DNA of 37,421 nt from Streptomyces rochei (GTDB taxonomy: Bacteria; Actinomycetota; Actinomycetes; Streptomycetales; Streptomycetaceae), in assembly GCA_002155895.1 (NCBI GenBank), contig MUMD01000200.1, positions 1-37,421 on the forward strand. Direction: 5' to 3'. Every line of letters starts with the position of its first letter. Position 1 is the first letter of the stretch. This document shows, one piece after another, positions 6,605-33,200 of the stretch. The notes beneath the pieces are model-generated. The model was not told the DNA's origin. It saw only the letters and a list, made by a program, of their open reading frames with translations, and did not search any database. Made by a program: the position numbers and the translations under genes.

Positions 6605-6659
6605 ACCGTATTCCGGCCGCCGGGGCCGCCCAACCCCTAGCGTCCGGGGCCTGCCCCTA
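6605..6659 (-). promoter_or_regulatory. Putative TAGGGGT-box promoter of the glycosyltransferase/rmlA operon
   Basis: Read on the minus strand, a distal TAGGGGC (6659-6653) is followed 20 bp later by a proximal TAGGGGTT (6639-6632). A -10-like TACGGT lies at 6610-6605, 23 bp beyond the seventh base of the proximal box. Transcription would start about 110 bases before the glycosyltransferase ATG. The arrangement matches that before 6746 and 13219. Function is inferred. Confidence 0.55.
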
Positions 6660-6711
6660 GGGCCACCAAGGGCACGTAGGGGTTTTTGCGGCCATCGGTG
6701 TTCCCTACTTT
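6654..6711 (+). promoter_or_regulatory. Putative TAGGGGT-box promoter of the acyltransferase/ligase operon
   Basis: The central palindrome CCCTAGGG (6655-6662) supplies a distal TAGGGC (6658-6663). The proximal TAGGGGTT is at 6677-6684, and a -10-like TACTTT is at 6706-6711, 23 bp from the seventh base of the proximal box. The ATG is at 6746. The central palindrome is shared with the divergent glycosyltransferase promoter. Function is inferred. Confidence 0.55.
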
Positions 6712-6745
6712 TGACGCCTGCGGCAGGAACGAAAGGCGGTCGGCC

Positions 6746-7708
6746 ATGCAGATGGATTCGAGCACCACACCCTCGTCCCGCTCCGCGATCGTCTTCCCCG
6801 GCATGGGGGCGATGTCATTCGCGGACGTGGGACGTTTCATGGTGGCCAACCCTTACGCACGGCGGTTGGTGGCCATCGCCGAAGAGGTCCTCGGCTATTC
6901 ACTGATCGACGGATACCGGCAGTCCGAGCACGACTACAGCGAAGCCGCCCAGGTCGCCTTCCTGGTCAACTGCCTGGCCCTGGCGGAATGGGCGGAGGCG
7001 GAACTCGGCGTCGCCCCCGACCTGTGCGCCGGCCCCAGCTTCGGCGGGAAGGCCGCAGCGGCCTACACCGGCTCCCTGCCCTTCTCGGACGCGGTGCTGA
7101 TGACCACGCGGCTGGCCGCCTGCCAGGACGCCTACTTCGCCGAGCACCACACGGACGTGGTCACCCACTCCTTCGTCCGCACGCCCGAGCCGAAGCTCCG
7201 CGAGATGCTCGCCGAACTCGAGGCACGCGACGAGTGGTACGAGATCTCCTGCTACGTCGACCACGACCTCTACATGGTCTCGCTGCGCGAGCAGGGCCTC
7301 GACCGGTTCAAGAAGCGCATCCGCTCCCTCGGCGGGCTGTCCCTCTACACGATGCGCCCGCCGCTGCACTCGGCGCGATTCGCCGACCTGCGCCGCCGCG
7401 CCGAGGACGAGGTGCTGGGCAAGCTGCCCTTCACCGACCCCCGGATGCCCGTCGTCTCCGACCACGACGGCACCCTGCTGACCGAGGGCGACCAGATCCG
7501 CACCCTGCTGCTGGACGGCATCGTGAGGCCCATGCGCTGGCCGGAGGTCGTGGCCGCGCTGCGCCGGAACGACGTGGCGACCGTGCACGTCGCCGGACCC
7601 GACAACCTCTTCGGCCGGGTCGCCTGCACCACCGACAACTTCGACGTGGTGCGCGTCAACCCGCGACTGGCCCTCCAGCCCCGCAACCGGCCCCACGCCG
7701 AGGCGTGA
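6746..7708 (+). CDS. Discrete acyltransferase, VinK-like (starter-unit transfer to PKS)
   Basis: A 320-residue stand-alone FabD-fold acyltransferase. It has the family opening IVFPGMGAM (residues 15-23), the nucleophile motif GPSFGG with Ser98, and the probable catalytic His208 in PPLHSARF. It lacks the GHSVGE and HAFH signatures of the malonyl-type AT domains encoded downstream. Its similarity in motif pattern, size and company is to VinK of vicenistatin biosynthesis. VinK moves an aminoacyl-protected beta-amino-acyl unit from a discrete carrier protein to the PKS loading ACP. The ATG at 6746 is chosen because AAGGCGG sits six bases upstream; upstream in-frame alternatives have no ribosome-binding site. 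It is followed 23 bases later by the adenylating ligase. The VinK-type role is inferred from family and context; a trans-AT or editing acyltransferase is the alternative. Confidence 0.82.
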   Translation: MQMDSSTTPSSRSAIVFPGMGAMSFADVGRFMVANPYARRLVAIAEEVLGYSLIDGYRQSEHDYSEAAQVAFLVNCLALAEWAEAELGVAPDLCAGPSFGGKAAAAYTGSLPFSDAVLMTTRLAACQDAYFAEHHTDVVTHSFVRTPEPKLREMLAELEARDEWYEISCYVDHDLYMVSLREQGLDRFKKRIRSLGGLSLYTMRPPLHSARFADLRRRAEDEVLGKLPFTDPRMPVVSDHDGTLLTEGDQIRTLLLDGIVRPMRWPEVVAALRRNDVATVHVAGPDNLFGRVACTTDNFDVVRVNPRLALQPRNRPHAEA

Positions 7709-7731
7709 CCGACCGCCCGAGGAGCGCATCC

Positions 7732-9288
7732 ATGTCCGAGGAGTACGGCGGTGCCCTGCACACGCGGTTCCTGAGCGGCCTCGCCCTGGCCCCCGAGCGG
7801 GCCGCGGTCCGCGGACCCGGCTGGGCCCTGACCTACCGGGAACTGCACGAGCGCGCGCTCACCTGGGCCGGGACCCTGCTGCGCGCGGCCGACGGCGACG
7901 CCCGGGGCGGCCCCGGCACCGTCGCGGTCCTGGCGGACAAGGGACCCGACGCCTACACCGGCGTCCTCGCGGCACTGTGCGGCGGCATGACGGTCGTACC
8001 GATGAGCACCTCCTTCCCCGCCTCCCGCATCCGGCAGATGCTGGACGCGGCCGAGGTGTCCGCGGTCGTCGCCGACGAGACCGGACGGGCCCTGCTCGCC
8101 GCGGCCACCGAGCCCGGTGTCCGCACCCCGCCGGTGCTGGCCACCGAGGGCGGCACCCTCCGGGCCGACGCCGCGCACGCGCTCACCGCGCCCCGCCCCG
8201 TCCGCCCCGAGGACACCGCCTACATCCTGTTCACCTCGGGATCCACCGGTCGGCCCAAGGGCGTGCGCGTCACGCACGGCGCCACCGACCACTACTTCCA
8301 GGTGCTGGACACCCGCTACCCCTTCACTCCCGAGGACGTCTTCTCCCAGACGTTCGACCTCAACTTCGACTGCTCCCTGTTCGACCTGTTCTGCGCCTGG
8401 GGCGCGGGGGCCACCGCCCAGCAGCTTCCGGCCGCCGCCTACCGGGACCTGCCCGGTTTCGCCGCGTCGGCCGGACTCACCGTGTGGTTCTCCACGCCCA
8501 GCGCCATCGCCCTGGCCCGCCGCACCGGAGGACTGGGGGAGGGCGCGCTGCCCGGCCTGCGCTGGAGCTTCTTCGCCGGTGAGGCACTCACCTGCCGGGA
8601 CGCCGGGGACTGGCACCGGGCGGCTCCCCACTCGCACGTGGAGAACCTCTACGGCCCCACGGAGCTGACCGTCACCGTCACCGGCCACCGCTGGTCACCG
8701 CAGGACGCGGCGGACCCGGCCGGGAACGGCCTGGTGCCCATCGGCACCGTGCACAAGGGACACGACTGGCTGCTCCTCGGCGAGGACGGCGAACCCGCGG
8801 CCGACGAGGGCGAACTCGTCGTGACCGGGCCGCAGACGACCCCCGGCTACCTGGACCCGGCGGACGACCGGGGCCGCTTCCTGGAGCGCGACGGCCGCCG
8901 CTGGTACCGCACGGGCGACCGGGTGCGCCGGGTCCGCGGCGAGGTGCTGGCCTACGTGGACCGCCTCGACGCCCAGGTCCAGGTACAGGGCTGGCGGGTC
9001 GAGCCCGCCGAGATCGACCAGCGGATGCGGGACGTGGCCGGCGTGCAGGACGCCGTCACGGTGGCGGTGCCCACGCCGGACGGCCAGAACGCGCTGGTCG
9101 GCTTCTACACCGGTGAACGCCTCTCCCCGGCCGTCCTGGTCCGCGCCCTGCGCGCCCATCTTCCGGAGCGCATGATCCCACGGCACTTCCACCACGTGCC
9201 CGCGTTCCCCCTCAACGCCAACCGCAAGACCGACCGCAAGGCCCTGCGGGCGCGGGCGGCCGAGCTGCTGAACCCGACCCGTTCCTGA
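7732..9288 (+). CDS. Amino-acid adenylating ligase (VinM-like, stand-alone A domain)
   Basis: An ANL-superfamily enzyme of 518 residues that activates a carboxylic acid as its adenylate and transfers it to a carrier-bound amine or thiol. Core motifs are intact: A3 FTSGSTGRPKG (167-177), A5 NLYGPTE (305-311), A7 YRTGD (392-396), an A8 region ending GWRVEPAEI (420-428) and A10 NANRKTDRK (495-503) with Lys499. The segment FDLNFDCSLFDLF (208-220) retains the aspartate that usually contacts an alpha-amino group, so an alpha-amino acid substrate is likely. There is no fused carrier or condensation domain. GAGGAG lies seven bases before the ATG. By analogy with VinM it would add a protecting amino acid to a beta-aminoacyl carrier protein before the adjacent acyltransferase acts. 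A beta-amino-acid-activating VinN-like role is the alternative. Confidence 0.82.
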   Translation: MSEEYGGALHTRFLSGLALAPERAAVRGPGWALTYRELHERALTWAGTLLRAADGDARGGPGTVAVLADKGPDAYTGVLAALCGGMTVVPMSTSFPASRIRQMLDAAEVSAVVADETGRALLAAATEPGVRTPPVLATEGGTLRADAAHALTAPRPVRPEDTAYILFTSGSTGRPKGVRVTHGATDHYFQVLDTRYPFTPEDVFSQTFDLNFDCSLFDLFCAWGAGATAQQLPAAAYRDLPGFAASAGLTVWFSTPSAIALARRTGGLGEGALPGLRWSFFAGEALTCRDAGDWHRAAPHSHVENLYGPTELTVTVTGHRWSPQDAADPAGNGLVPIGTVHKGHDWLLLGEDGEPAADEGELVVTGPQTTPGYLDPADDRGRFLERDGRRWYRTGDRVRRVRGEVLAYVDRLDAQVQVQGWRVEPAEIDQRMRDVAGVQDAVTVAVPTPDGQNALVGFYTGERLSPAVLVRALRAHLPERMIPRHFHHVPAFPLNANRKTDRKALRARAAELLNPTRS

Positions 9289-9410
9289 ACGACCGGGACG
9301 ACCGGTGCGGCGGCGACCCGGCTGGGCCGGCCGGTACGACCGGGCCGGCTGGTATGGCTGGTACGACCGGGACGGTCGGTACGGCTGGGCAGGCTGCTAC
9401 GGCTGCTACG
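9289..9410. repeat. Degenerate GC-rich short repeats after the ligase gene
   Basis: ACGACCGG recurs at 9289, 9298, 9336 and 9363. GGTACGACCGGG occurs at 9333-9344 and 9360-9371 (27-bp period), and GGCTGCTAC is tandem at 9392-9409. It lies between the ligase stop and a strong terminator and looks like a decayed minisatellite. I see no ribosome-binding site or convincing coding sequence in it. Confidence 0.6.
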
Positions 9411-9436
9411 GCGTGAAGTGGCGGGCCACCACATGT

Positions 9437-9468
9437 GAGAGCCGCGAACCGACCGGTTCGCGGCTCTC
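9437..9468. terminator. Bidirectional hairpin terminator between convergent operons
   Basis: A perfect 14-bp stem (9437-9450 with 9455-9468, starting GAGAGCCGCGAACC) has a 4-base loop gacc. It sits between the convergent ligase and dTDP-glucose 4,6-dehydratase genes and would serve both. Confidence 0.88.
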
Positions 9469-9492
9469 GTCCGTACGTGCGGCTCGGCCCGC

Positions 9493-10473
9493 TCAGGCCG
9501 CCGGCAGCCCCTCGCACAGCGGCTTCCACCACGCCGGATGGTCGACGTACCAGCGGACCGTGTCGGCCAGGCCCTCGTCGAAGGGGACACCCGGCCGGAA
9601 GCCCAGCGCCCGCAGCTTCCCGTCGTCCAGCGAGTACCGCCGGTCGTGTCCCTTGCGGTCCGGCACCCGCCGCACCATCTCCGGCCCGGCGTCCAGGGCC
9701 CGCAGCAGACGGTCGGTCAGCTGCAGGTTGGTCAGCTCCGTCCCGCCCGCGATGTGGTGCACCTCGCCCGGCACGCCCCGTTCGGCCACCAGCTGGATGC
9801 CCCGGCAGTGGTCGTCCACATGGATCCAGTCCCGGACGTTCAGCCCGTCCCCGTACAGCGGCACCGGGCGGCGCTCCAGCAGACGGGTCACGAACAGCGG
9901 GATGACCTTCTCCGGGTACTGGTAGGGCCCGTAGTTGTTGCCGCACCGGGTGACCCGCACGTCCAGCCCGTGCGTCCGCGCGTACGACAGCACCAGCAGG
10001 TCCCCGCCGGCCTTCGCCGCCGCGTACGGGGAGTTCGGCGACAACGGCGCCTCCTCCGTCCACGAGCCCGCGTCGATCGAGCCGTACACCTCGTCCGTGG
10101 ACACGTGCACCAGCCGCGCTCCCGCCGCCAGGCACGCCGCGGCCAGCCGGTGCGCGCCCACCGCGTTGGTCAGCGCGAACACGTCCGCCGCCGTGATCGA
10201 CCGGTCCACATGGGTCTCGGCCGCGAAGTTGACCACCACGTCGTGGCCCGGGACCAGCGACGCCAGCAGCTCGCTGTCGCAGATGTCCCCCTTCACGAAC
10301 GTGTACCCGCCCGCCACCGGTTCGAGGTTGGCCGGATTGCCGGCGTACGCCAGCTTGTCCAGGACGGTCACCTCGGCGCCCGCCCAGGCGGGGAACCCTC
10401 CGGTGAGCAGGGTGCGCACGTAGTGCGACCCGATGAACCCTGCCCCTCCGGCCACCAGTACCCGCTTCACCAT
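9493..10473 (-). CDS. rmlB: dTDP-glucose 4,6-dehydratase
   Basis: Converts dTDP-glucose to dTDP-4-keto-6-deoxyglucose with bound NAD+, the second step of the sugar pathway. The 326-residue SDR protein has the Rossmann motif GGAGFIGS (residues 9-16), the catalytic STDEVYG with Thr126-Asp127-Glu128, and the YxxxK pair Tyr150/Lys154 in SPYAAAKAGGD. The RmlB hallmark CGNNYGPYQYPEKVIPLF and the GDGLNVRDWIHVDDH segment follow. The ATG at 10473 overlaps the aldo/keto reductase stop by 7 bases, showing tight translational coupling; it is the last gene of a three-gene minus-strand sugar operon. A strong hairpin lies just beyond the stop. No anomalies were seen. Confidence 0.97.
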   Translation of the reverse strand: MVKRVLVAGGAGFIGSHYVRTLLTGGFPAWAGAEVTVLDKLAYAGNPANLEPVAGGYTFVKGDICDSELLASLVPGHDVVVNFAAETHVDRSITAADVFALTNAVGAHRLAAACLAAGARLVHVSTDEVYGSIDAGSWTEEAPLSPNSPYAAAKAGGDLLVLSYARTHGLDVRVTRCGNNYGPYQYPEKVIPLFVTRLLERRPVPLYGDGLNVRDWIHVDDHCRGIQLVAERGVPGEVHHIAGGTELTNLQLTDRLLRALDAGPEMVRRVPDRKGHDRRYSLDDGKLRALGFRPGVPFDEGLADTVRWYVDHPAWWKPLCEGLPAA

Positions 10474-11486
10474 GCCCACGCCTCCGGTCCCGGACCACCG
10501 TTGCCGAGCGGCGGGAACAGTTCCTCCAGCTCGGCCAGCAGACCCTCGTCCAGCCGCAGGCCGAGTGCCCGCCGCGCCCCGTCCAGCTGCGCGGTGGTGC
10601 GGGGGCCCACCACCACCGAGGTCACCCCCGGCCGGTTCAGCACCCACGCGAGTGCGACCTCCGCCGGATCCAGCCCCGCCTCGGCGCACAGCTTCTCGTA
10701 GCGGGTCACCGCGGCCCGGTGCTGCTCCAGCGCCACCGACGCCCGGCCCTGCGCCGTCTTCACGGCGGTGCCGTCGGCGAGTTTGCGCAGCGCCCCGCCG
10801 AGCAGACCACCGTGCAGCGGGGACCAGACCAGGATGCCCATGCCGTACGCCTGCGCCGCCGGCACCAGCTCCAGCTCCACGTACCGGGTCACCAGGTTGT
10901 ACACGCACTGCTCGGAGACGATGCCCAGGAAGTGCCGCCGGTTCGCCGCCTCCTGCGCCGCCGCCAGGTGCCAGCCCGCGAAGTTGGACGACCCCACGTA
11001 CCGGATCTTGCCCTGCTGGACCAGCACCTCCATGGCCTGCCACACCTCCTCCCAGGAGGCCGCGCGGTCCACGTGGTGCATCTGGTACAGGTCGATCCAG
11101 TCCGTGCGCAGCCGCCGCAGCGAGTTCTCGCACCCCGCGATGATGTGCCGGGCCGACAGCCCCTGGTCGTTGGGCAGATCGCTCATCGGGTTGAACACCT
11201 TGGTGCCCAGCACCACCCGCTCGCGCCGGCCGCCCCCCTGGGCGAGCCAGTCGCCGATCAGCTCCTCGGTGAACCCCTTGTGCTCCTGCCAGCCGTACTG
11301 GTCGGCCGTGTCGAAGAAGTTGACACCGCGCTCCAGCGCCTCGTCCATCAGCGCGAACGCCTCTTCGCGGGTGGTGCGGACGCCCAGGTTCAAGGTGCCC
11401 AGGCACAACCTGCTCACCTGCAGCGCCGTACGCCCCAGCCGGGTGTACTCCATGGTGTCCGCGTCACCGTCGTGTGCCGCCGTCAT
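10467..11486 (-). CDS. Aldo/keto reductase, NDP-hexose C-3 ketoreductase (EryBII/TylCII-like)
   Basis: A 339-residue AKR-superfamily oxidoreductase, NADPH-dependent by family. The core begins MEYTRLGRTALQVSRLCLG (from residue 12), and the catalytic tetrad appears intact: Asp59 in NFFDTAD, Tyr64 in QYGWQ, Lys96 in LGTKVF and His137 in YQMHHVD. In deoxysugar pathways this family reduces the 3-keto (or enone) intermediate left by the 2,3-dehydratase, and the neighbouring 2,3-dehydratase supports that. The start at 11486 is chosen because its ATG forms an ATGA overlap with the dehydratase stop; an internal ATG at 11453 matches the usual family start and is the alternative. It overlaps rmlB by 7 bases. 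The stereochemical outcome cannot be read from the sequence. Confidence 0.9.
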   Translation of the reverse strand: MTAAHDGDADTMEYTRLGRTALQVSRLCLGTLNLGVRTTREEAFALMDEALERGVNFFDTADQYGWQEHKGFTEELIGDWLAQGGGRRERVVLGTKVFNPMSDLPNDQGLSARHIIAGCENSLRRLRTDWIDLYQMHHVDRAASWEEVWQAMEVLVQQGKIRYVGSSNFAGWHLAAAQEAANRRHFLGIVSEQCVYNLVTRYVELELVPAAQAYGMGILVWSPLHGGLLGGALRKLADGTAVKTAQGRASVALEQHRAAVTRYEKLCAEAGLDPAEVALAWVLNRPGVTSVVVGPRTTAQLDGARRALGLRLDEGLLAELEELFPPLGNGGPGPEAWAW

Positions 11487-12973
11487 CGTGCCGGGACCTC
11501 CTCGCCCGTGCCGGTCGCCCGGGTCCCGCCGGCCAGACTGTGCAGGCAGGCGACGAGACTGCGGGCCTCGATGTTCAGGTAATGGCCGTGCCGGAGAAGC
11601 CCGGCGAGCTGATGCAGGGCGACCCAGCGGAACGTGTCGTCCTCGATCCGGTGGTCGCCGTGCCAGTCGACGATCAGATAGCGGTTGACCGCGTGGTGGA
11701 ACCGGCCCCCCTCCTCCGACAGACGACTGTCGAACCGGACGCGCTCCGCCGGCGCTTCCAGCACCTCGTCCAGGAAGCGCAACTGCGGCGGGTACGGCGC
11801 CCGCGGATAGTTCGACGGCACGCACTGCACCGTCGGCGCCAGCTCCACCTTGTCGATCAGACCCGCCTGGGTACGGGCGTTGACCAGGGCGTGCACCACA
11901 CCGCCGATCTCGGCGACCAGGAAGGCCACCACGCCCTGCGCCACCGGCTCGATCAAGGGCTGCGTCCACTGCCGCACCTCGCGGCCCGCGGCCCGCACAT
12001 CCACCCCGATCACGCGGAAGAACCGCCCGTCCTCGTGGGCCACGCACTCCTCGGTGCGCTTCCACCCGCGCACCTCGTCCAGCGGCACCCGCCGCACCGC
12101 CAGGCCGCTGCCCGCCCGCAGACCCGCCAGCCAGCTCAGGATCTCCCCGGTGGGGTGCAGGGCGCCCGTCTCCTCCACGCAGGACCGCAGCACGGCCGTC
12201 GAAGCCGGCGCCCCCTCGCCGGCGCCGCCGAAGGGCAGGCAGGCCAGGACCGACCGGGCGTCCATGTTGATCACGTCGTCCTCGGCCAGCAGCCGGTGGA
12301 TCTGGCCCAGGGTGAGCCACCGGAAGCTCTCCCCGGCCCCGACCTCGACCTCCCGCCCCACCTCCACCACGATGTTCCGGTTCCGCTTCCCGACGAACCA
12401 CGAACCCTGCTCCGACTGGAGGGAGTCGGCCAGCACATGGTGGCGCCCGGCCTGCTGGAAGAACTCCACGTACGGCACCGAAGCGCCCTGGTGGACCCTG
12501 CTGTAGTTGCTGCGCGTCGCCTGGACGGTGGGGGACAACTGGACGCCGTTGTGGTTGCCCGGCTCGTTCTTGGCCTGCATCAGGAAGTGCAGCACCCCGC
12601 CGAACTCCTTGGCGACCAGCCCCAGGATGCCGATCTCCGGCTGCCGGATCACCGGCTGCTCCCACCCCGGTGAGCCACCGTCGACATCCTCGGCCGCCAG
12701 CCCCTCCACCGAGAAGAAGCGGCCCGAGTCGTGCACCAGGTTGCCGGTGCCCGGCTCGGAACGCCAGCCGGACAGCCGGTCCAGCGCGATCCTGCGGACC
12801 TCGGCGACGTCGTCGCGCACCCGCCCCGCGTACCAGTCCCGGAACTCCCGGTCGCCGGTGGCCACCCCCTCCACGGCGAGCGCCGACTCGGCCAGCCGCG
12901 CGGCCGTGCGCATCGCGCTCTGCCGGTCCGGCGGTCCGAGCGGCGGCGCCGTCGCGGGAAATACATCGGCCAT
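11483..12973 (-). CDS. NDP-hexose 2,3-dehydratase (EryBVI/TylCVI-type)
   Basis: Removes the C-2 hydroxyl from the dTDP-4-keto-6-deoxyhexose, committing the sugar to a 2-deoxy series. The 496-residue protein shows the internal duplication typical of this family. A first half holds EQPVIRQPEIGILG (105-118) and QLSPTVQATRSNYSR (145-159). A second half holds TQPLIEPVAQGVVAF (337-351) and ELAPTVQCVPSNYPR (377-391). Each half ends in a similar block (VINMDARSVLACL, then YLNIEARSLVACL). The ATG at 12973 has AAGGGGA upstream with a 6-base spacer. It is the first gene of the minus-strand sugar operon and faces the aminotransferase gene across a 245-base divergent region. I could not identify a convincing promoter for it; the TAGGGGT boxes there point the other way. 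Confidence 0.95.
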   Translation of the reverse strand: MADVFPATAPPLGPPDRQSAMRTAARLAESALAVEGVATGDREFRDWYAGRVRDDVAEVRRIALDRLSGWRSEPGTGNLVHDSGRFFSVEGLAAEDVDGGSPGWEQPVIRQPEIGILGLVAKEFGGVLHFLMQAKNEPGNHNGVQLSPTVQATRSNYSRVHQGASVPYVEFFQQAGRHHVLADSLQSEQGSWFVGKRNRNIVVEVGREVEVGAGESFRWLTLGQIHRLLAEDDVINMDARSVLACLPFGGAGEGAPASTAVLRSCVEETGALHPTGEILSWLAGLRAGSGLAVRRVPLDEVRGWKRTEECVAHEDGRFFRVIGVDVRAAGREVRQWTQPLIEPVAQGVVAFLVAEIGGVVHALVNARTQAGLIDKVELAPTVQCVPSNYPRAPYPPQLRFLDEVLEAPAERVRFDSRLSEEGGRFHHAVNRYLIVDWHGDHRIEDDTFRWVALHQLAGLLRHGHYLNIEARSLVACLHSLAGGTRATGTGEEVPAR

Positions 12974-13102
12974 GGGAGATCCCCTTCGGTCGTACCTTTC
13001 CCCATTCGTCGGCGAGCCTATTCAAGGAAAGACAGCACAGGGAATGCTCCAGAACCCCGGAAATAACGTCCCCCGCCACCGTCAGCGTGTTCCCCCGAAG
13101 AA

Positions 13103-13210
13103 TAGGGGTGGCAACCGGCGGCCACCTCGCCCACCACGTCCCACGGCGGCACAGCGTAGGGGTGTCCCCGAAGAGCTAGGGGTTAACACCGTACGTTCCC
13201 GCTCTTTATG
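13103..13210 (+). promoter_or_regulatory. Putative TAGGGGT-box promoter of the aminotransferase/PKS operon
   Basis: Three boxes occur: TAGGGGT at 13103-13109, 13157-13163 and 13177-13183, the last two exactly 20 bp apart. The proximal box runs directly into a -35-like TTAACA (13183-13188); a -10-like TTTATG lies at 13205-13210. A start about 7-9 bases further would fall at the GTG at 13219, implying a leaderless mRNA. CCCC-GAAGA precedes the first and third boxes at near-identical spacing. Function is inferred. Confidence 0.6.
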
Positions 13211-13218
13211 CTCCCCCC

Positions 13219-14394
13219 GTGTTCCGACTTCCCGTATTCCGCGAGCCACTGCACGTCGGCCGCCCCAATATAGGCGACCGCGAAAAACTCCGGGAAAAAA
13301 TCGACGATGCGCTGGACCGCCGGTGGCTGAGCAGCGGCCCGCTGGTGCGCGAACTCGAGGAGCGGGTCGCCGCACTGGCCGGCACCGCCCACGCCGTCGC
13401 GACGTGCAACGCGACCGTCGCCCTCCAGCTCGCGGCCCGCGCCACCGGCGTGCAGGCCGGCGCCGAGGTGATCGTCCCGTCCTTCACCTGGGTGGCCACC
13501 CCGCACGCCCTCGACTGGATCGGCCTCACCCCCGTCTTCTGCGACGTCGACGAGGAGACCGCCGGTATCGACCCGGCGCACGCCGAGAAACTCGTCGGAC
13601 CCGCCACCGGCGCCATCCTGGGCGTGCACGCCTTCGGCCGCCCCTGCCCGATCGACGAACTCACCGAACTCGCCGACCGCCACGGACTGCCCCTGCTGTT
13701 CGACGCCGCCCACGCCCTCGGCTCCACCCACCGCGGACGCCCCGTCGGCGGCTTCGGCAGCGCCGAGGTCTTCTCCTTCCACGCCACGAAGTTCATCAAC
13801 AGCTTCGAAGGCGGAGCCCTGGTCACGGACGATCCCCGGGTCGCCGAACGCGCCCGCGCCATGCGCAACTTCGGCATCGGCGAGGACCGCGAGGTGATCT
13901 CCTCCGGCACCAACGCCAAGATGAGCGAGGCCAGCGCGGCCATGGGACTGGTCTCCCTGGAACGCGTGGACGCCCTGATCGAGCAGAACACCCGCAACCA
14001 CCGCCTCTACGAGGAAGGGCTGGCGGGACTGCCCGGCATCTCCGTCCGGGGACAGGAGCCGGGGGAGCGGGCCAACCACCAGTACCTGGTCGTCGAGATC
14101 GACCAGGCCGAGGCCGGCGTCCACGCCGACCAGGTGCACGCCGTACTGGAACGCCACAACGTGCTCGCCCGCCGCTACTTCCACCCCTGCTGCCACCAAC
14201 TCGCCCCCTACAGCGACCGGCCCGAGACCCACGCCCCCCTGCCGCTGCCGCGCTCCGAGGCACTGGCCGAGCGGGTACTGGCACTGCCGACCGGCGAGGT
14301 CATCGGCGAGGAGGAGATCGACGGCGTCTGCCGCATCATCCGCTGGGCCGTGGAGACCGGCTGCGCGGACGGCGCCCCGAGCACGACGGACTGA
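13219..14394 (+). CDS. PLP-dependent sugar aminotransferase (DegT/DnrJ/EryC1/StrS family)
   Basis: Transfers an amino group, usually from glutamate, to a keto-sugar nucleotide. The 391-residue protein has the phosphate/substrate-region SGPLVRELEERVA, the cofactor-ring aspartate Asp162 in LFDAAHALGS, and the Schiff-base Lys191 in SFHATKFINSFEGG. Because C-3 chemistry is covered by the 2,3-dehydratase and ketoreductase, amination at C-4 is the likely role, as in vicenisamine-type sugars, but C-3 cannot be excluded. The GTG at 13219 is the only sensible start: no ribosome-binding site precedes it and the ATG at 13208 is out of frame, so leaderless translation is plausible. The gene heads the PKS operon, with 90 bases to the first PKS gene. 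It is transcribed away from the other sugar genes. Confidence 0.94.
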   Translation: MFRLPVFREPLHVGRPNIGDREKLREKIDDALDRRWLSSGPLVRELEERVAALAGTAHAVATCNATVALQLAARATGVQAGAEVIVPSFTWVATPHALDWIGLTPVFCDVDEETAGIDPAHAEKLVGPATGAILGVHAFGRPCPIDELTELADRHGLPLLFDAAHALGSTHRGRPVGGFGSAEVFSFHATKFINSFEGGALVTDDPRVAERARAMRNFGIGEDREVISSGTNAKMSEASAAMGLVSLERVDALIEQNTRNHRLYEEGLAGLPGISVRGQEPGERANHQYLVVEIDQAEAGVHADQVHAVLERHNVLARRYFHPCCHQLAPYSDRPETHAPLPLPRSEALAERVLALPTGEVIGEEEIDGVCRIIRWAVETGCADGAPSTTD

Positions 14395-14408
14395 GAAGAC
14401 GGGAACGC

Positions 14409-14427
14409 CGGCCGCCGGAGGCGGCCG
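14409..14427 (+). other. Small hairpin between aminotransferase and first PKS gene
   Basis: CGGCCGCC (14409-14416) pairs with GGCGGCCG (14420-14427) around a 3-base loop. It could attenuate or protect the transcript between the two genes. With an 8-bp stem in GC-rich DNA it may have no role. Confidence 0.35.
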
Positions 14428-14484
14428 CGCCACGACCGGCCGGCGCCGCGACGCCTGGCCGACCCATGTACTGAAGAGGCTGGT

Positions 14485-25245
<10,761 letters not shown>

Positions 25246-25279
25246 CGCACCTGTGGTACCTGACGAAACGGTGGGACCG

Positions 25280-28200
25280 ATGTCCAACGAGACGGCGAAC
25301 GACGAGAAGCTGCGCGACTATCTCCGACGCGCCACGACGGACCTGCGCGAGACCCGACGCCGCCTGCGCGAGGCCGAGGAACTCCAGCACGAGCCGATCG
25401 CCGTCGTCGGCATGGGCTGTCGCATGCCGGGAGGAGTGCGCACCCCCGACGAACTGTGGGAGCTGATCGCCGACGGCCGCGACGCGATGTCCCCGTTCCC
25501 CACCGACCGGGGGTGGGACCTGGACGGACTCCACGGCCCCGACCCGGACACCCCCGGCGCCAGCCTGGCCCGCGCCGGGGGCTTCCTGGACGACATCGCC
25601 CACTTCGACGCGACCCTCTTCGGCATCAACCCGCGCGAGGCCCTGGCGATGGACCCGCAGCAGCGACTGCTGCTGGAACTCACCTGGGAGTCCCTGGAAC
25701 GCGCGGGCATCGACCCGCTCTCCCTGCGGGACACCCGCACCGGCGTCTTCGCCGGCGCCATGTACCACGACTACAACACCCGCCCGATCCAGGTGCCCGA
25801 GGACGTCGAGGGCTACCTGATGATCGGCAACTCGGCCGCCGTACTGTCGGGCCGAGTCGCGTACGCGTTCGGCTTCCAGGGGCCCGCCGTCACCATCGAC
25901 ACCACCTGTTCCTCCTCCCTGGTCACCATCCACCTGGCGTGCGCCGCCCTGCGGCGCGGAGAGTGCACCCTCGCCGTCGCCGGCGGCGCCACGGTGATGT
26001 GCGCCCCCGACGTCTTCGTGGAGTTCAGCCGGCAAGGCGCGCTGTCCGCCGACGGCCGCTGCAAGGCGTTCTCGGCGGCGGCCGACGGCACCGGCTGGTC
26101 CGAAGGGGTGGGCCTGGTCCTGCTCGAACGCCTCTCGGACGCCCGCCGCAACGGTCACGAGGTGCTCGCCGTCGTGCGAGGGTCGGCGGTCAACCAGGAC
26201 GGCGCCTCCAACGGGCTGACCGCACCCAACGGACCGGCGCAGCGCCGCGTCGTGGAGGACGCGCTGCTCGCCGCCCGCGTGAGCCCCGACGAAGTCGACG
26301 CCGTCGAGGCCCACGGCACCGGCACCGTCCTCGGCGACCCGATCGAGGCCGACGCCCTGCTCGCCACCTACGGCCGGGACCGGCCGCACGACCGCGCACC
26401 CCTGTGGCTCGGGTCGGTCAAGTCGAACATCGGGCACACCCAGGCGGCCGCGGGTGTGGCCGGCGTGATCAAGATGGTGATGGCGATGCGGCACGGGGTG
26501 CTGCCCCGGACGCTGCACGTGGAGGAGCCGTCGCCGCACGTGGACTGGTCGGCCGGAGCGGTGGAACTGCTCACCGAGGCCCGGCCCTGGGAGCGAGCCG
26601 GCCACCCCCGCCGCGCCGGTGTCTCCTCCTTCGGGATCAGCGGCACCAACGCCCACGTCATCCTCGAAGAGGCCCCCGACGACACGTCCGACGTTCCGGC
26701 GGACGAGGGCCGGGACACCGACCGGACGTCAGGACGGTGCAGGACCGTGCCGTGGGTCCTGTCCGGCCGCACCGACGCCGCCCTGCGCGCTCAGGCCGGC
26801 CGACTGGCCGAGCACCTGGCCGGTCACCCGCACCTGGAGCCGGCGGACGTCGGCCACACACTCACCACCCGCGCCGCGATGGACCGCAGGGCCGTGGTCG
26901 TCGGCTCCGATCGTGAGGAACTGCTGCGCGGACTGGCCGAGGTGGCCTCCGGAGAGCAGCCGGGGGACTCACCCGTCACCGGGCGCACGGCGTTCGTGTT
27001 CTCGGGGCAGGGAAGTCAGCGTGCGGGTATGGGGCGCGAGTTGTACGACGCGTTTCCGGTGTTCGCGCGGGCGCTGGACGAGGTGGTCGGGGCGCTTGGG
27101 CTGCCGTTGCGTGAGGTGATGTGGGAGGGGGAGGGGGAAGGGCTGGACCGGACGGGGTTCACTCAACCGGCTCTCTTCGCCTACGAGGTGGCTCTGTACA
27201 GGTTGTTGGAGTCGTGGGGCGTGCGGCCCGACATGGTGGCCGGGCATTCGGTGGGTGAGCTGAGCGCTGCCCATGTGGCGGGTGTGCTGTCGCTGGAGGA
27301 TGCGGCGACGCTGGTGGCGGCTCGGGCGCGGTTGATGGAGGCGCTGCCGGACGGCGGGGCGATGATCGCCGTACAAGCCACTGAGGACGATGTCCGCAAG
27401 CATCTCATCGACGGCGTGGACATCGCGGCGGTGAACGGCCCCCGGTCCGTGGTGATCTCGGGTGCTGTTGAGGCGGTCACGGAGGTGGCTGGTCACTTCG
27501 AGCGCACCACGCGGCTGAAGGTGTCGCATGCCTTCCATTCGCCGTTGATGGAGCCGATGCTCGATGAGTTCCGTCGGGTGGCGTCCGGGCTGACCTACCA
27601 GGCCCCGGCTCTTCCGGTGGTGTCGAACGTGACCGGCCGGCTCGCCGAGCCGGGCGACCTTCAGGACCCGGAGTACTGGGTCCGTCACGTCCGAGGAACC
27701 GTCCGCTACCACGACGGCATCGGCAGCCTCGTGGCCCGGGGCGTGCGCCGGTTCCTCGAACTGGGGCCCGCGCCCGTGCTGACCGCGCTCGCCGCCGACC
27801 GTCCGGAGACGGACGGTGCCGTGCACATCGCCACCGCCCGCAGTCGAGGCGGTGCGACGGACTCCCTGCTGCGTGCCGTCGGACGACTCCACACGAGTGG
27901 CCTGTCCCCGGACTGGAACGCCGTGTTCGCCACCACAGGTCCCGTGCAGCGGGTGCCCCTGCCCACCTACGCCTTCCAGCGCAAGCGCTACTGGCTCGAC
28001 GTCACGCCCGGCCACCAAGACGCGGCAGCCGGGCCCGAACACCTCCGTTACCGGGTCGCCTGGCACCCGGCCGTGTCGTCGGACGCGGGACGCGTGCTCC
28101 AGGGGACGTGGAACATCGTGGTCCCCGCGACCCACCGGGACCACCCCCTCGTTCCGGCCCTGGTGGACGCCGTCACCCGGAGCGGCGGGAAGCCGTCCGT

Positions 28201-30112
28201 ACTCGTCACGGACACGAGCACGGGGGCGGGCGCGGACACAGTCACGAGTACGGGCGCGGACGACACGGCGGCCGGCATCGCCGACGCCGGCCCGGACGAA
28301 CTGAGGGGACGACTCGGTTCCCCCGCCGGAGTGCTCTCCCTGCTGGCGCTGGACGACAGGCCGCACGCCCGCCACGCGGGTCTCACCCGAGGGTTGGCCG
28401 GCACCCATGCGCTGGTCAAGGCGGTTCGCGCACTGGCCGAACCCGCCGCGCTCTGGTGTGTCACGAGTGGCGCCGTCGCCGTCCACGACGGCGAGGACGT
28501 CCGGTGCGACCAGGCCCAGGTGTGGGGGACCGGCACCGTCCTGGCCCTGGACCATCCGGACACCTGGGGCGGCCTCATCGACGTGCCCCCGGCCGAGGCC
28601 GTCGCCGCCCCCGAACTGGCGCTCCGCATCGTCGGTCTGGTCGCCGATCCGGGCGGCGAGGACCAGTTGGCCGTACGGTCCGGCGGCGTCTTCGGCCGGC
28701 GTCTGGTCCGTGCTCCTCGTCCCCGGCCCGGCACGAGTGGGTGGCGGCCCCGCGGGACCGTGCTCGTCACCGGGGGCACCGGCGCCCTCGGCGCCCACAC
28801 GGCCCGCTGGCTCGTCCGGCACGGTGCCCGTCACCTCCTCCTCACGAGCCGACGCGGCCCTCAGGCCCCCGGCGCCGCCGAGTTGGCCGCCGAGCTGACC
28901 GCCCTGGGGGCCGAGGCCACCGTCGTGGCGTGCGACGTCACCGACCGGGAGGCGGTCGTCGCCCTCCTGGACCACGTACCCGACGAGCACCCGCTGACCG
29001 CCGTGGTGCACGCCGCCGGCGTCATGCCCGAGCCCGTCGACCTGACCGACATGGCACCGGAGACCTTCGCCGACGTCAGCCGCGCCAAGACCGAGGGCGC
29101 CCGGCTCCTGGACGAAGTGCTCGGTGACCGGCCGCTGGACGCCTTCGTCCTCTACTCCTCCGGGGCCGCCGTCTGGGGCAGCGCGGGACAGGCCGCCTAC
29201 GCCGCCGGCAACGCCCACCTGGACGCGCTCGCCCACCGTCGCCGTGCCCGGGGACGCGCCGCCACCGCCATCGCCTGGGGCCCCTGGCGGGGCGGCATGG
29301 TCGACGCCGAGGCCGAGGCCGCCCTGCGCCGGGCCGGAGTCCCCCCGATGGACCCCGAGCCCGCCCTCGAAGTGCTCCGGCAGGCCCTGGACGACGACGA
29401 GACACATCTTGTCGTCGGCGACTTCGACTGGCCCCGCTTCTCCGCCGTCTACGCCTTCGAGCGCGCCCGGCCGCTGCTGCGGGCCCTCCCCGAGGCCACC
29501 GGCCCCGCCGGGGACGGCACAGCCGTACCGGACGTGCGGGCGGACGAAGGCGCGAGAGGGGAGCGCCTGTCGGCCGAACGGCTGGCCGCACTGCCCGTGG
29601 CCGACCAGGAGCAGACCTTGGTGGAACTCGTCACCGAACACGCCGCCAAGGTCCTCGGCTACGATCGCGACGAGGTCGAGCCCGACAGGGCGTTCAAGGA
29701 CATCGGGTTCGACTCCATGACCGCCGTCGACTACCGGCGCCGGCTCTCCGCCGTGCTCGGGCTCGACCTGCCGGCCACCCTGATCTTCGACCACGCCACT
29801 CCCACCGCGCTCGCCCGTCACCTGAGGTCGGAACTCCTCGGGCCCGACGCCGACCCGCTCACCGCCGTCCTCGCCGACCTGGACCGGCTGGAAGCCGCCG
29901 CGCCCGGCCTCCCCCAGGAGGAGATCGACCGCAACCGGCTCGCCGCCCGCCTGCAAGCCCTGGCCTCCCGCCTCCTCGCCGGCAGCGGCAGCACGGACAC
30001 GAGCGCACCACCCGGAGACGCCGGGGACGCCACCGACGTGGCCAGCCGTCTCGAGGACGCGGACGCCGACGACGTACTCGCCTTCATCGACAAGGAACTC
30101 GGCGTCGGCTGA
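25280..30112 (+). CDS. Type I modular PKS, one module: KS-AT-KR-ACP
   Basis: Adds one malonyl unit and reduces its ketone to a hydroxyl. The 1610-residue protein has an N-terminal docking coiled coil ([20 protein letters not shown]), KS about 40-463 (Cys210 in DTTCSSS, His345, His386), AT about 570-860 (Ser657, HAFH malonyl signature), KR about 1150-1350 (GGTGALG, Trp1299, Tyr1307 in AAYAAGN), ACP with Ser1479 in GFDSMT, and a C-terminal docking tail. There is no DH or ER; AT runs straight into the KR structural subdomain. The KR has the Trp of A-type enzymes and no LDD, predicting an L-configured, non-epimerised alcohol. Its AT is nearly identical in DNA to those of the other PKS genes while flanking KS and KR sequences are not. 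A two-residue GE insertion sits in the AT. The ATG at 25280 follows the previous stop by 34 bases; in-frame GTGs at 25253 and 25271 are weaker starts. Confidence 0.96.
26986..27720 (+). repeat. Homogenised AT-domain cassette inside the single-module PKS
   Basis: From FVFSGQGSQ to GTVRYHDGI the DNA is nearly identical to 16159-16880, 21364-22080 and 31991-32710, including synonymous positions. Codon use switches to G/T-rich third positions within it, and similarity stops sharply at both ends. It looks like an AT swap or gene-conversion tract. Confidence 0.75.
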
Positions 30113-30134
30113 GCCGACCCGGTCCGACCGGAAC

Positions 30135-30160
30135 CACCGCCGGGGCGCGCCCCGGCGGTG
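30135..30160 (+). terminator. Perfect 26-bp palindrome after the single-module PKS gene
   Basis: CACCGCCGGGGCG followed immediately by its reverse complement, 22 bases after the stop. It would form a very stable hairpin in RNA. It probably ends the aminotransferase-PKS transcript, with a new promoter downstream at about 30184-30260. Confidence 0.75.
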
Positions 30161-30183
30161 CTACCACCGGGGCACGGTGCTTG

Positions 30184-30257
30184 TAGGGGCGACTAGGGGT
30201 AGGCGGCCCCGACGCCGCACTGAATTCTTAGTCATTGATCATTCATAGCCATTGATC
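30184..30257 (+). promoter_or_regulatory. Putative regulatory region of the third PKS gene: two TAGGGG boxes and AT-rich patch
   Basis: TAGGGGC (30184-30190) and TAGGGGT (30194-30200) are 10 bp apart, one helical turn. A -10-like TGAATT begins 21 bp after the last T of the second box, in an unusually AT-rich stretch (30220-30275). That stretch also contains the direct repeat CATTGATC at 30233-30240 and 30250-30257. The match to the other TAGGGGT promoters is looser here. Confidence 0.45.
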
Positions 30258-30293
30258 GTGGTTCGTCATTATTTGCGCAGTGGGGTGACCTTG

Positions 30294-33200
30294 GTGCAGG
30301 ACGAGAAGAAGGTTCTCGACTACCTCAAGAAGGTGAGCGCAGAGCTGCATCAGACACGTCAGCGGCTGCGACAGACCGAGGACCGACACCAGGAGCCCAT
30401 CGCCATCATCGCGATGAGCTGCCGCTATCCCGGCGGTGTGCGCTCACCGGAGGACCTGTGGCGGCTGGTCGCCGAGGGCGGTGACGCCATCGGCCCCTTC
30501 CCCGACGACCGGGGATGGAACCTGGACGCCCTGCTGCACCCCGACCAGGACCGCCCGGGCACCTCGTACGTCCGTGAGGGCGGCTTCGTCGACGACATAG
30601 CCGGCTTCGACCCCGGCTTCTTCGGCATCAGCCCCCGCGAGGCACTGGCCATGGACCCCCAGCAGCGGCTGGTCCTGGAGGTGGCCTGGGAGGCGTTCGA
30701 ACGCGCCGGTATCGATCCCCACGCGTTGCGCGGCGCACCCGTCGGCGTCTTCACCGGCTCCGGCGGCCACGACTACGGCGAACTCGTCGCCACCCGGCCC
30801 GAGGTGGCCGAGGCCTACATGATGACCGGCAGCTCCGGCTCCGTCATCACCGGACGGGTCGCCTACACCCTCGGTCTGGAAGGGCCGGCGGTGACCGTGG
30901 ACACGGCCTGCTCCTCCTCCCTCGTGGCCATGCACCTCGCCTGCCACGCACTGCGCCGACAGGAGTGCTCGCTCGCCCTGGCGGGCGGGGTGGCGCTGCT
31001 CGTCAAACCCGAACCCTTCGTCGCCTTCAGCCGACAGGGCGGCCTGGCCGCCGACGGCCGTTGCAAGCCGTTCTCCGACAGCGCCGACGGCACCGGCTGG
31101 TCCGAGGGCGTCGGCGTGCTGATGCTGGAACGGCTCTCCGACGCCGAGCGCAACGGACACCGGGTACTGGCCGTCATCCGCGGCTCGGCCGTCAACCAGG
31201 ACGGCGCCTCCAACGGCCTCACCGCACCCAACGGACCCGCCCAGCGGGACGTCATCCGGCAGGCCCTGGTCGACGCCCGTCTGACGACCGGCGACATCGA
31301 CGTGGTCGAAGGGCACGGCACCGGAACCACACTCGGCGATCCGATCGAGGCCCAGGCCGTTCTCGCCACCTACGGACAGGGGCGCCCGGCGGACCGGCCG
31401 TTGTGGCTGGGCTCCCTGAAGTCCAACCTGGGCCACACCCAGGCCGCGGCCGGCGTCGCCGGCGTGATCAAGATGGTCATGGCGATGCGGCACGAGGTGC
31501 TGCCCAAGACCCTGCACGTCACCGAGCCGAGCACGCACGTCGACTGGACCGCGGGCGCGGTCGAACTGCTGACCGAGGCCCGCCCCTGGAAGACCGACGG
31601 GCGTCCGCGCCGCGCCGGTGTCTCCTCCTTCGGCGCGAGCGGTACCAACGCACACCTGATCATCGAGGAGGCCCCGCTCCCGCAGGCCGACCCGGAGGAG
31701 ACGGCGGAAAGGACGCGGACGGACCTCCTGCCGCCGTTCCTGATCTCCGGCAAGGGCCCCGCAGCCCTGCGCGACCAGGCCCGCGCCCTGTCGGCCTTCC
31801 TCGCCGAGCAGCCGGACCTCGACCTCACCGACCTCTCCTACGCCCTCGCCACCACGCGCGCCTCCTTCGAGCATCGCGCGTCCGTCGTCGCGGCCGACCG
31901 CGAAGAACTCACCCGGTCACTCACCGCCCTCGCCGCGGACGAATCCGCTCCCGGCCTCCACACGGACACCCTGCGGCCCGGAAAGTCGGCCGTGGTGTTC
32001 TCGGGGCAGGGGAGCCAGCGTGCGGGTATGGGGCGTGAGCTGTATGACGCGTTCCCGGTGTTCGCGCGGGCGTTGGACGAGGTGGTCGAGGCGCTTGGGC
32101 TGCCGTTGCGTGAGGTGATGTGGGACGGGGAGGGTCTGGACCGGACGGGGTTCACGCAGCCGGCTCTCTTCGCTCACGAGGTGGCGCTGTATCGGTTGTT
32201 GGAGTCGTGGGGTGTGCGGCCGGACATGGTGGCCGGGCATTCGGTGGGTGAGCTGAGTGCTGCTCATGTGGCGGGGGTGCTGTCGCTGGAGGATGCGGCA
32301 ACCCTGGTGGCGGCTCGGGCGCAGTTGATGGAGGCGCTGCCGGACGGCGGGGCGATGATCGCCGTGCAGGCCACGGAAGAGGACATCCGCAAGCACCTCG
32401 TCGACGGTGTGGACATCGCGGCGGTGAACGGCCCCCGGTCCGTGGTGATCTCGGGTGCCGTGGAGGCTGTTACGGAGGTGGCTGGTCACTTCGAGCGCAC
32501 CACGCGGCTCAAGGTGTCTCACGCTTTCCATTCGTCGTTGATGGAGCCGATGCTCGATGAGTTCCGTCGGGTGGCGTCCGGGCTGACCTACCACGCCCCG
32601 GCTGTCCCGGTGGTGTCGAACGTGACCGGCCGGCTCGCTGAGCCGGGTGATCTCCAGGACCCGGAGTACTGGGTCCGTCATGTCCGTGGGACCGTCCGCT
32701 ACCACGACGGCATCCGCACCCTGGAGGACGAGGGCGTCCGGACCTTCGTGGAGGTCGGCCCGCAGGCCGTCCTCGCGGGACTCGGCTGCGGCGAGGACGC
32801 CGTGTTCGTGGCGGCCCAGCGCCGAGATCGCGCTGAGGCGGTCCAGCTGGTCACCGCGCTGGGTGAGCTGCACACCCGTGGTGTCACCGTCGACTGGGAG
32901 GCGTTCTTCGCCGGTCGTGGTGCCCGCACCGTCGACCTCCCCACCTACGCCTTCCAGCGCAAGCGCTACTGGGTGAACCCGGCTGTCCAGACCGGCGACC
33001 CGGCGTCCATAGGCCAGCGCACCATCGACCATCCCATGCTCAGTGCCGTCGTTCCGCTCGCGGACTCGGACGGCATCGTCCTCACCGGGCGCCTCTCGCT
33101 CCGTACTCACCCCTGGCTCGCCGACCACGCCGTCATGGGCACGGTGCTGCTGCCCGGCACCGGGTTCGTGGAGCTGGCGGTGCGCGCCGGTGACGAGGTG

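What the first reader, a model, noticed from the sequence alone, without database searches (positions are those of the whole stretch)
6605..30257. A TAGGGGT box family with conserved promoter geometry in three intergenic regions
Seen: TAGGGG(T/C) occurs at 6639-6633 (minus), 6659-6653 (minus), 6677-6683, 13103-13109, 13157-13163, 13177-13183, 30184-30190 and 30194-30200. Three promoters have a distal box 19-20 bp upstream of a proximal TAGGGGTT at the -35 position, with a -10-like hexamer 22-23 bp further on (TACGGT 6610-6605, TACTTT 6706-6711, TTTATG 13205-13210). The fourth, before the third PKS, has boxes 10 bp apart. All spacings are near whole helical turns, placing boxes on one DNA face. 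Inference: these are sites for one activator touching RNA polymerase at -35, coordinating sugar, starter and PKS operons. The CTAGGG half resembles half of the PAS-LuxR (PimM-type) box CTVGGGA, but the second half is missing. The spacing does not fit the 11-bp SARP heptamer rule, so the regulator is unknown.
Basis: partly seen in the sequence, partly recalled or inferred. Interest (0 to 1): 0.78.

Follow-up and report, generated by a model that had tools for sequence, protein, structure and literature searches.

The report
Shared activator boxes in macrolactam cluster
Short TAGGGG boxes, repeated one or two DNA turns apart at a fixed distance from the start of transcription, mark promoters of a vicenistatin-like antibiotic gene cluster and of many related clusters, and are most likely the docking sites of the cluster's own MalT-like activator protein.

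Summary
The window is a whole contig of a fragmented Streptomyces genome, holding part of a vicenistatin-type macrolactam cluster. The boxes are kept in the S. pilosus orthologue, with further pairs at other promoters. In 20 other vinK regions, TAGGGG occurs as same-strand pairs 10/11 or 20-22 bp apart (31 phased pairs in 17 of 20; 29 control hexamers mean 2.1, max 12). Paired boxes avoid coding DNA (0 of 54). A TANNNT -10 hexamer starts 29/30 bp after the proximal box in 20 of 31 cases (other windows mean 0.23). The likeliest binder is the cluster's LAL protein (MalT-like STAND ATPase with LuxR-type HTH): a LAL lies within 85 kb of vinK in 19 of 20 genomes, and pairs at 10 or 20 bp are enriched near LALs of the same HTH class outside vinK clusters. 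SARP and PAS-LuxR sites do not fit. No binding was measured; outside vinK clusters the -10 geometry is weak and most LAL neighbourhoods lack a pair.

The parts
6634..6639 (-). Proximal TAGGGG(TT) box of the glycosyltransferase (vinC-like) operon promoter
   Evidence: conserved in S. pilosus
6654..6659 (-). Distal TAGGGG box of the same promoter, 20 bp upstream; overlaps the distal box of the divergent promoter (CCCCTAGGGC)
6605..6610 (-). -10-like TACGGT, 29 bp from the start of the proximal box
   Evidence: conserved
6658..6663 (+). Distal TAGGGC box of the vinK promoter
   Evidence: TAGGGT in S. pilosus
6677..6682 (+). Proximal TAGGGG(TT) box of the vinK promoter
6706..6711 (+). -10-like TACTTT, 29 bp from the start of the proximal box
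13103..13108 (+). Extra TAGGGG box, 54 bp upstream of the next one, in a block conserved in S. pilosus
13157..13162 (+). Distal TAGGGG box of the aminotransferase (vinF-like) promoter
13177..13182 (+). Proximal TAGGGG(TT) box of the aminotransferase promoter
13207..13212 (+). -10-like TATGCT, 30 bp from the start of the proximal box (better fit than TTTATG 13205-13210)
   Evidence: conserved
30184..30189 (+). Distal TAGGGG box before the third PKS gene
30194..30199 (+). Proximal TAGGGG box before the third PKS gene, 10 bp from the distal one; no clear -10 at 29/30
5203..6486 (-). Glycosyltransferase gene (activator-dependent family), first gene of the minus-strand operon; start 6486 is my choice
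6746..7708 (+). VinK-type acyltransferase gene
   Evidence: PF21124 VinK_C
13219..14394 (+). DegT/DesI-like sugar aminotransferase gene
30252..37421 (+). Third large PKS-type reading frame of the window, cut by the contig end; real start probably GTG 30294 (my reading). Not itself scanned against Pfam; PKS by strong DNA similarity to the other PKS modules
1..2457 (+). C-terminal 818 aa of a SARP-STAND regulator; its SARP/BTAD part lies off the contig
   Evidence: S. pilosus orthologue, 1066 aa

Best explanation
The boxes are operators of the cluster-situated LAL activator, a MalT-like STAND ATPase of about 950 aa with a C-terminal LuxR-type HTH. An activated LAL multimer binds two or more head-to-tail TAGGGG boxes set one or two helical turns apart. 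The proximal box covers the -35 position (29-30 bp from box start to a TAGCGT-like -10), so the bound protein recruits RNA polymerase at promoters that lack a good -35. One regulator thereby switches on starter, sugar, PKS and thioesterase operons together. Shown here: box placement, phasing, -10 distance, conservation, presence of the LAL gene and statistical association of boxes with this LAL HTH class. Inferred: that the LAL binds the boxes, that it activates, and that binding is multimeric.
For: Placement and phasing in the window. Boxes conserved in S. pilosus and found at further promoters of its complete cluster. In the own genome a pair follows the LAL gene (L101 5825/5845) and two pairs lie in the TE/last-PKS region (L060). 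20 other vinK regions: 31 phased pairs against a mean of 2.1 and max of 12 for 29 permuted hexamers, in 17 of 20 regions. Paired boxes in apparent coding DNA 0 of 54, unpaired 48 of 120, random positions 788 of 1,000. -10 at 28-31 bp in 20 of 31, or 17 of 28 after merging the most similar sequences; other windows mean 0.23, max 1. LAL within 85 kb of vinK in 19 of 20 genomes; the exception, G302, has no pair. 10 of 10 LALs read in the own genome and the 40-kb vinK regions share STVEQHL in the recognition helix. No other DNA-binding regulator was recognised among the genes scanned in the cluster except the SARP-STAND protein. Non-vinK neighbourhoods of this LAL class: TAGGGG pairs at exactly 10 or 20 bp, 12 in 35 regions (control hexamers mean 0.38, max 4) and 3 in 9 regions (mean 0.03, max 1); in 11 neighbourhoods of other LALs, 0. 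The LAL profile matches the MalT NOD in the PDB (8bob, E 1.6e-5). MalT multimers bind MalT boxes cooperatively and recruit RNA polymerase (PMC4381067 passages).
Against: No binding, transcription-start or mutant data. LAL-like genes are common (11-28 matches of any size per genome), so one within 85 kb of a PKS cluster is not rare. In non-vinK LAL neighbourhoods the -10 distance is barely enriched (3 of 16; other windows mean 0.38, max 2), and 29 of 44 such 20-kb regions have no phased pair. Counting all phased spacings there, the excess is smaller: 15 pairs against mean 3.0, max 13 (35 regions) and 3 against mean 1.03, max 8 (9 regions); the 10/20-bp count was picked after seeing the vinK spacings. 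The 11 other-LAL regions do hold 2 phased pairs, at 11 and 22 bp. G174 has two LALs near vinK but no strict pair; G122 has a LAL at 74 kb and only a 13-bp pair. One FkbO region (G027) has a TAGGGG array with no LAL homologue in 40 kb. The LALs compared outside vinK clusters were chosen for similarity, so their shared helix is partly selection.
Confidence: 0.75

Rival explanations
1. The boxes are bound by the cluster's other regulator, the SARP-STAND protein whose C-terminal part is the first gene of the window.
For: It lies in the cluster, next to the boxes, and carries OmpR-like and BTAD domains in S. pilosus.
Against: No homologue (tblastn E up to 1e-8) in the 40-kb vinK regions, 0 of 20. 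BTAD genes within 85 kb of vinK are seen for 4 of 20 genomes in a listing that was cut short, against LAL in 19 of 20. The usual SARP operator is heptamers with 4-bp spacers (PMC3367932 passages); here 10 and 20-21 bp are commonest, and the box end lies 23-24 bp from the -10.
Confidence: 0.08
2. The boxes are bound by a regulator encoded outside the cluster (a global regulator, a two-component LuxR regulator, or a BldC-like direct-repeat binder).
For: Binding was not measured; BldC binds direct repeats as cooperative multimers (PMC5859096, title and abstract start seen in the listing); G174 and the G027 array break the simple LAL rule.
Against: In the own genome, among the 30 of 42 TAGGGGTT loci that were read, phased pairs occur only in this cluster, which is not what a global regulator would give; pairs at 10 or 20 bp go with LAL genes of one HTH class; BldC sites are A+T-rich (recalled).
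Confidence: 0.13
3. TAGGGG/TAGCGT is the -35/-10 pair of an alternative sigma factor.
For: A fixed distance between two conserved elements.
Against: 23-24 bp between the hexamers is too long for sigma contacts at both (recalled: about 16-19); the boxes come as phased tandem copies at one- or two-turn spacing.
Confidence: 0.03
4. The boxes are chance G+C-rich hexamers.
For: The whole-window count is not above chance.
Confidence: 0.01

Closest known systems
MalT boxes of Escherichia coli (operators of the LAL archetype MalT)
   Same: Short asymmetric G-rich box, several per promoter, used by a STAND ATPase with a LuxR-type HTH that multimerises and recruits RNA polymerase (PMC4381067 and PMC9628970 passages); the LAL profile matches the MalT NOD.
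   Different: Sequence differs (MalT box GGA[TG]GA against TAGGGGT); 10-bp and 20-21-bp head-to-tail spacing; protein similarity to MalT is remote.
LAL binding site CTAGGGGGTTGC of FkbN/RapH-type regulators (recalled from a patent; from no call)
   Same: The consensus around the proximal box here reads about cTAGGGGttg, close to the recalled site.
   Different: Recalled only. My test in FkbO neighbourhoods was void: 0 of 10 held a LAL homologue. A phased repeat and -10 rule is not part of what I recall.
PAS-LuxR (PimM-type) box CTVGGGAWWTCCCBAG
   Same: Half-site CTAGGG; the consensus is quoted in PMC9942304 (passage).
   Different: No palindrome; direct repeats instead; no match in the promoter regions.
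SARP heptamer repeats
   Same: Direct repeats placed by helical turns near the -35 (PMC3367932 passages).
   Different: 10 and 20-21 bp commonest instead of 11, and (against a recalled 8 bp) a longer distance to the -10.

Membership tests
LAL (MalT-type LuxR) regulators: the protein | N-terminal ATPase domain and C-terminal LuxR-type HTH in a protein of 872-1159 aa | tested here: met
   L101:2918-5794, 958 aa: AAA_16 at 25-176, GerE at 885-936; definition and size range from PMC6022917 passages
LAL (MalT-type LuxR) regulators: the protein | STAND architecture (NOD, helical repeat sensor, HTH) as in MalT | tested here: met
   Profile of 35 LALs matches the MalT NOD, 8bob (E 1.6e-5, one stretch); the MalT sensor 1hz4 (E 3e-5) has no stretch passing alone and other TPR proteins score alike, so the sensor part is weak. 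Model mean pLDDT 86.4: NTPase, long helical repeat, HTH. Foldseek: STAND-TPR protein first, MalT fifth, TM-scores low
LAL operator (MalT-like box array) | Repeated asymmetric boxes in same-strand (direct) orientation upstream of target promoters | tested here: met
LAL operator (MalT-like box array) | Proximal box at a fixed position covering the -35 | tested here: met
   20 of 31 in vinK clusters; weak outside them, 3 of 16
LAL operator (MalT-like box array) | Bound by the LAL protein | not testable with these tools
   association only
SARP operator | Heptamer direct repeats with 11-bp period | tested here: not met
   Spacings 10 (17 pairs), 20-21 (7 pairs), 11 (6 pairs), 22 (1 pair); box end 23-24 bp before the -10
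PAS-LuxR (PimM) box | Palindrome CTVGGGAWWTCCCBAG | tested here: not met
   One 3-mismatch hit in the window, in a coding region at 12135, at chance level
vicenistatin-type macrolactam cluster | VinK acyltransferase, glutamate mutase, VinJ-type hydrolase, starter decarboxylase, amino-sugar genes, modular PKS | tested here: met
   the S. pilosus orthologue supplies MutE, a B12-binding protein, a PLP decarboxylase, an alpha/beta hydrolase, an ACP and a thioesterase; gene roles from PMC5785472 passages

The most novel reading that the evidence does not exclude
LAL regulators whose recognition helix reads STVEQHL share one operator grammar across Streptomyces polyketide clusters: TAGGGG boxes head to tail at one or two helical turns, then a TAGCGT-like -10 at 29-30 bp. 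This grammar would let a LAL regulon be read from sequence alone and would show that a STAND multimer can bridge boxes one or two turns apart.
Probability: 0.45. Interest if true: 0.68.

Novelty: new variant of a known kind. Interest (0 to 1): 0.56.

Why it matters
LAL proteins control many macrolide and macrolactam clusters, yet their operators are poorly defined in the open papers whose passages I saw: PMC9628970 (2022) could not predict a consensus for its LAL, and PMC5015266 (2016) calls AveR and PikD the only LALs whose mechanism had been studied in any depth. A sequence rule with a fixed box phase and -10 distance would allow LAL targets to be predicted, promoters to be annotated where no -35 is visible, and silent clusters to be tied to the regulator that should wake them. 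It also makes a mechanistic question testable: how a STAND multimer reads head-to-tail boxes at both one and two turns.

Tried and rejected
FkbO-based search for FK506/rapamycin-type clusters, to test the LAL site I recall from a patent: 13 of 394 genomes had the family; 10 of the 13 neighbourhoods were read and 0 of 10 held a LAL homologue, so the test is void.

General LAL neighbourhoods: box plus -10 geometry is not enriched in the 9 + 11 non-vinK neighbourhoods and hardly in the larger set (3 of 16), so I do not claim the -10 rule outside vinK clusters.

PAS-LuxR palindrome, SARP spacing and sigma-type spacing were considered and rejected. A vinD promoter with boxes was sought: TAGGGG has no minus-strand copy next to vinD; only a TAGGCT conserved in S. 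pilosus (13015-13020, minus). A sigma-70 and terminator scan of 30050-30300 found nothing.

Those with TAGGGG, CTAGGG, CTAGGGG, CCCCTA or GGGGT plus LuxR, LAL or Streptomyces terms listed no title on this box. I read passages of 8 papers only; the single CTAGGGG in PMC3367932 is in a primer. This is not a proof that the box is not in print.
Full report
WHAT THE WINDOW IS. The 37,421 bases are the whole of one contig (C114) of a 7.68-Mb genome in 808 contigs. Protein families (10 frames scanned, the PKS frames not) show a glycosylated beta-amino-acid macrolactam cluster: VinK acyltransferase, amino-acid adenylating enzyme, glycosyltransferase, dTDP-glucose synthase, 4,6- and 2,3-dehydratases, an aldo-keto reductase and a DesI-like aminotransferase, followed by three long PKS frames. 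One close relative was found in the genome collection, Streptomyces pilosus NZ_BMTU01000002.1 (VinK 90% identical). Its contig gave the orthologous cluster, including a glutamate mutase (MutE and a B12-binding protein), a PLP decarboxylase, an ACP, a VinJ-like hydrolase, a methyltransferase, a thioesterase, a SARP-STAND regulator of 1,066 aa and a LAL regulator of 953 aa. The roles of vinH-O and VinJ are as described in passages of PMC5785472. The vin names of the sugar genes are recalled, and the product was not tested. I therefore say vicenistatin-type.

THE OBSERVATION. All eight boxes are confirmed; a ninth TAGGGG lies in the aminotransferase gene. The total is ordinary but the placement is not: 8 of 9 in 1,236 intergenic bases, where intergenic shuffles give 0.82 on average and never 8 in 2,000. 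In the whole genome TAGGGGTT is rarer (42) than its reversed control (68), and 3 of the 42 sit in this window. Of the 42 sites, 30 were available as loci of about 3 kb; phased TAGGG[GC] pairs occur in 4 of the 30: three loci from the window, and L060, which maps to the thioesterase/last-PKS promoter region of the S. pilosus cluster. So each phased pair seen among those 30 loci belongs to this one cluster; 12 sites were not read. 0 of 30 other loci around LuxR-type genes of the same genome had a TAGGGG pair.

CONSERVATION AND EXTENSION. In S. pilosus the TAGGGG boxes of the three regions are kept, and further pairs appear before the VinJ-like gene (26185/26205), the minus-strand PKS (102505/102495) and the thioesterase (103605/103596). 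The adenylation gene has one TAGGGG at 27678, with TGGGGT 10 bp upstream and TACTGT 29 bp downstream (read by eye). The own genome keeps the first of these pairs right behind its LAL gene at a contig end (L101 5825/5845). The stretch before the LAL gene in S. pilosus shows no TAGGGG, so the regulator does not appear to be under its own box.

A GRAMMAR SHARED BY MANY CLUSTERS. VinK was searched in 394 genomes of the family; 71 matches are strong (E up to 1e-56), own and S. pilosus included. I picked 20 of the other 69, mostly on long contigs, and read 40 kb around each. TAGGGG is rare there (174, against a mean of 476 for 29 permutations of its letters), yet it makes 31 pairs at 9-11 or 19-22 bp, in 17 of 20 regions; permutations make a mean of 2.1 and at most 12. 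Distance 10 alone has 17 pairs. The three regions without such a pair are G302, G174 and G122 (G122 has one at 13 bp). In G174, two single boxes have a TANNNT at 30 bp, with degenerate boxes upstream (read by eye). Paired boxes lie in apparent coding sequence (a frame-composition rule of mine) in 0 of 54 cases, unpaired ones in 48 of 120, random positions in 788 of 1,000. Of 31 proximal boxes (25 from the 20 regions, 6 from S. pilosus), 20 have TANNNT starting 28-31 bp from the box start, all 20 at 29 or 30, 16 of them fitting TAGNGT; 53 other 4-bp windows give a mean of 0.23 and a maximum of 1. Merging only the most similar sequences leaves 17 of 28; some of the genomes are close kin, so the number of independent events is lower still. 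Unpaired boxes: 12 of 123. Three further promoters (G245, G386, G197) have TTCAAT instead at 30 (listing, read by eye).

WHICH PROTEIN. Among the genes scanned in the cluster only two DNA-binding regulators were recognised, the LAL and the SARP-STAND protein. A LAL homologue lies within 85 kb of vinK in 19 of 20 genomes (3.8 to 82 kb, distances); the exception, G302 (268 kb to the nearest one I took from the listing), also has no box pair. This is supportive rather than decisive, since these genomes hold 11 to 28 LAL matches of any size. The SARP-STAND protein has no homologue in the 40-kb regions, 0 of 20, and any BTAD protein within 85 kb appears for 4 of 20 genomes in a listing that was cut short. 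The 10 LALs read in the own genome and the 40-kb regions all carry STVEQHL in the recognition helix; those of the other regions lie outside what I read. To go beyond vinK clusters, 49 neighbourhoods of LALs of this HTH class were read (9; 40, of which 5 contained VinK and were set apart, 3 of 5 with a phased pair). In the 35 and 9 without VinK there are 12 and 3 TAGGGG pairs at exactly 10 or 20 bp (permutations mean 0.38, max 4; and mean 0.03, max 1). In 11 neighbourhoods of LALs with other helices there are none at 10 or 20, but one each at 11 and 22. With all phased distances counted the contrast is weaker: 15 against mean 3.0, max 13; 3 against mean 1.03, max 8; 2 against mean 0.86, max 5. 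Some of the 15 promoters are related (L153, L194, L195, L203 and L214 look alike in the listings). The -10 rule is weak in this set (3 of 16; other windows mean 0.38, max 2).

MECHANISM. The LAL has an AAA ATPase domain and a GerE HTH. A profile of 35 LALs matches the MalT NOD in the PDB, and the predicted fold is NTPase, long helical repeat, HTH. Foldseek puts a STAND-TPR protein first and MalT fifth, with low TM-scores and many unrelated TPR proteins nearby. [quoted passage not shown] the MalT box is GGA[TG]GA (PMC9628970 passages). The same scheme explains asymmetric boxes in direct repeat, whole-turn spacing, a proximal box at the -35 and the absence of a canonical -35. Class assignment (LAL) was tested; that this operator is bound by it is inferred. 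The divergent vinC/vinK region is notable: the two distal boxes overlap in one CCCCTAGGGC, so the two promoters may share or compete for a protomer (inference).

LIMITS. Gene starts are mine. No literature statement of this box was found in the searches made, but I recall a patent naming CTAGGGGGTTGC as a LAL site for FkbN/RapH-type regulators; if right, the box itself is partly known and what is new is the promoter grammar and its spread. After re-checking the calls I lowered the main confidence from 0.76 to 0.75, because LAL genes are common and the all-distance contrast outside vinK clusters is modest.

Noticed in passing
window 1-2457: The first gene is the C-terminal part of a SARP-STAND (AfsR-like) regulator; the contig starts inside it, and its OmpR/BTAD part is seen only in the S. 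pilosus orthologue (1066 aa).
   Followed up: partly
window 30135-30160: A perfect G+C palindrome (CACCGCCGGGGCG/CGCCCCGGCGGTG) lies between the second and third PKS genes, just before the box pair; predicted fold -41.5 kcal/mol for 30113-30183, z -2.3; it is not conserved in S. pilosus.
   Followed up: partly
window 13207-13221: With the -10 at 13207-13212 the transcript of the aminotransferase gene would begin at or next to its GTG start (13219), so it may be leaderless.
   Followed up: no
window 13015-13020 (minus): A TAGGCT -10-like hexamer upstream of the 2,3-dehydratase gene is conserved in S. pilosus, but no TAGGGG box faces that gene; how this operon is switched on is open.
   Followed up: partly
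L184 about 11018-11104 (minus strand): An array of six TAGGGG boxes (spacings 11, 32, 11, 20, 12) in a FkbO-type region (G027) with no LAL homologue in the 40 kb read.
   Followed up: no
L153, L194, L195, L203, L214: Five neighbourhoods share a promoter with two TAGGGG boxes 10 bp apart followed by a third, degenerate AAGGGGTT box.
   Followed up: no
window 6654-6663: The distal boxes of the two divergent promoters overlap in one CCCCTAGGGC, CCCCTAGGGT in S. pilosus.
   Followed up: partly
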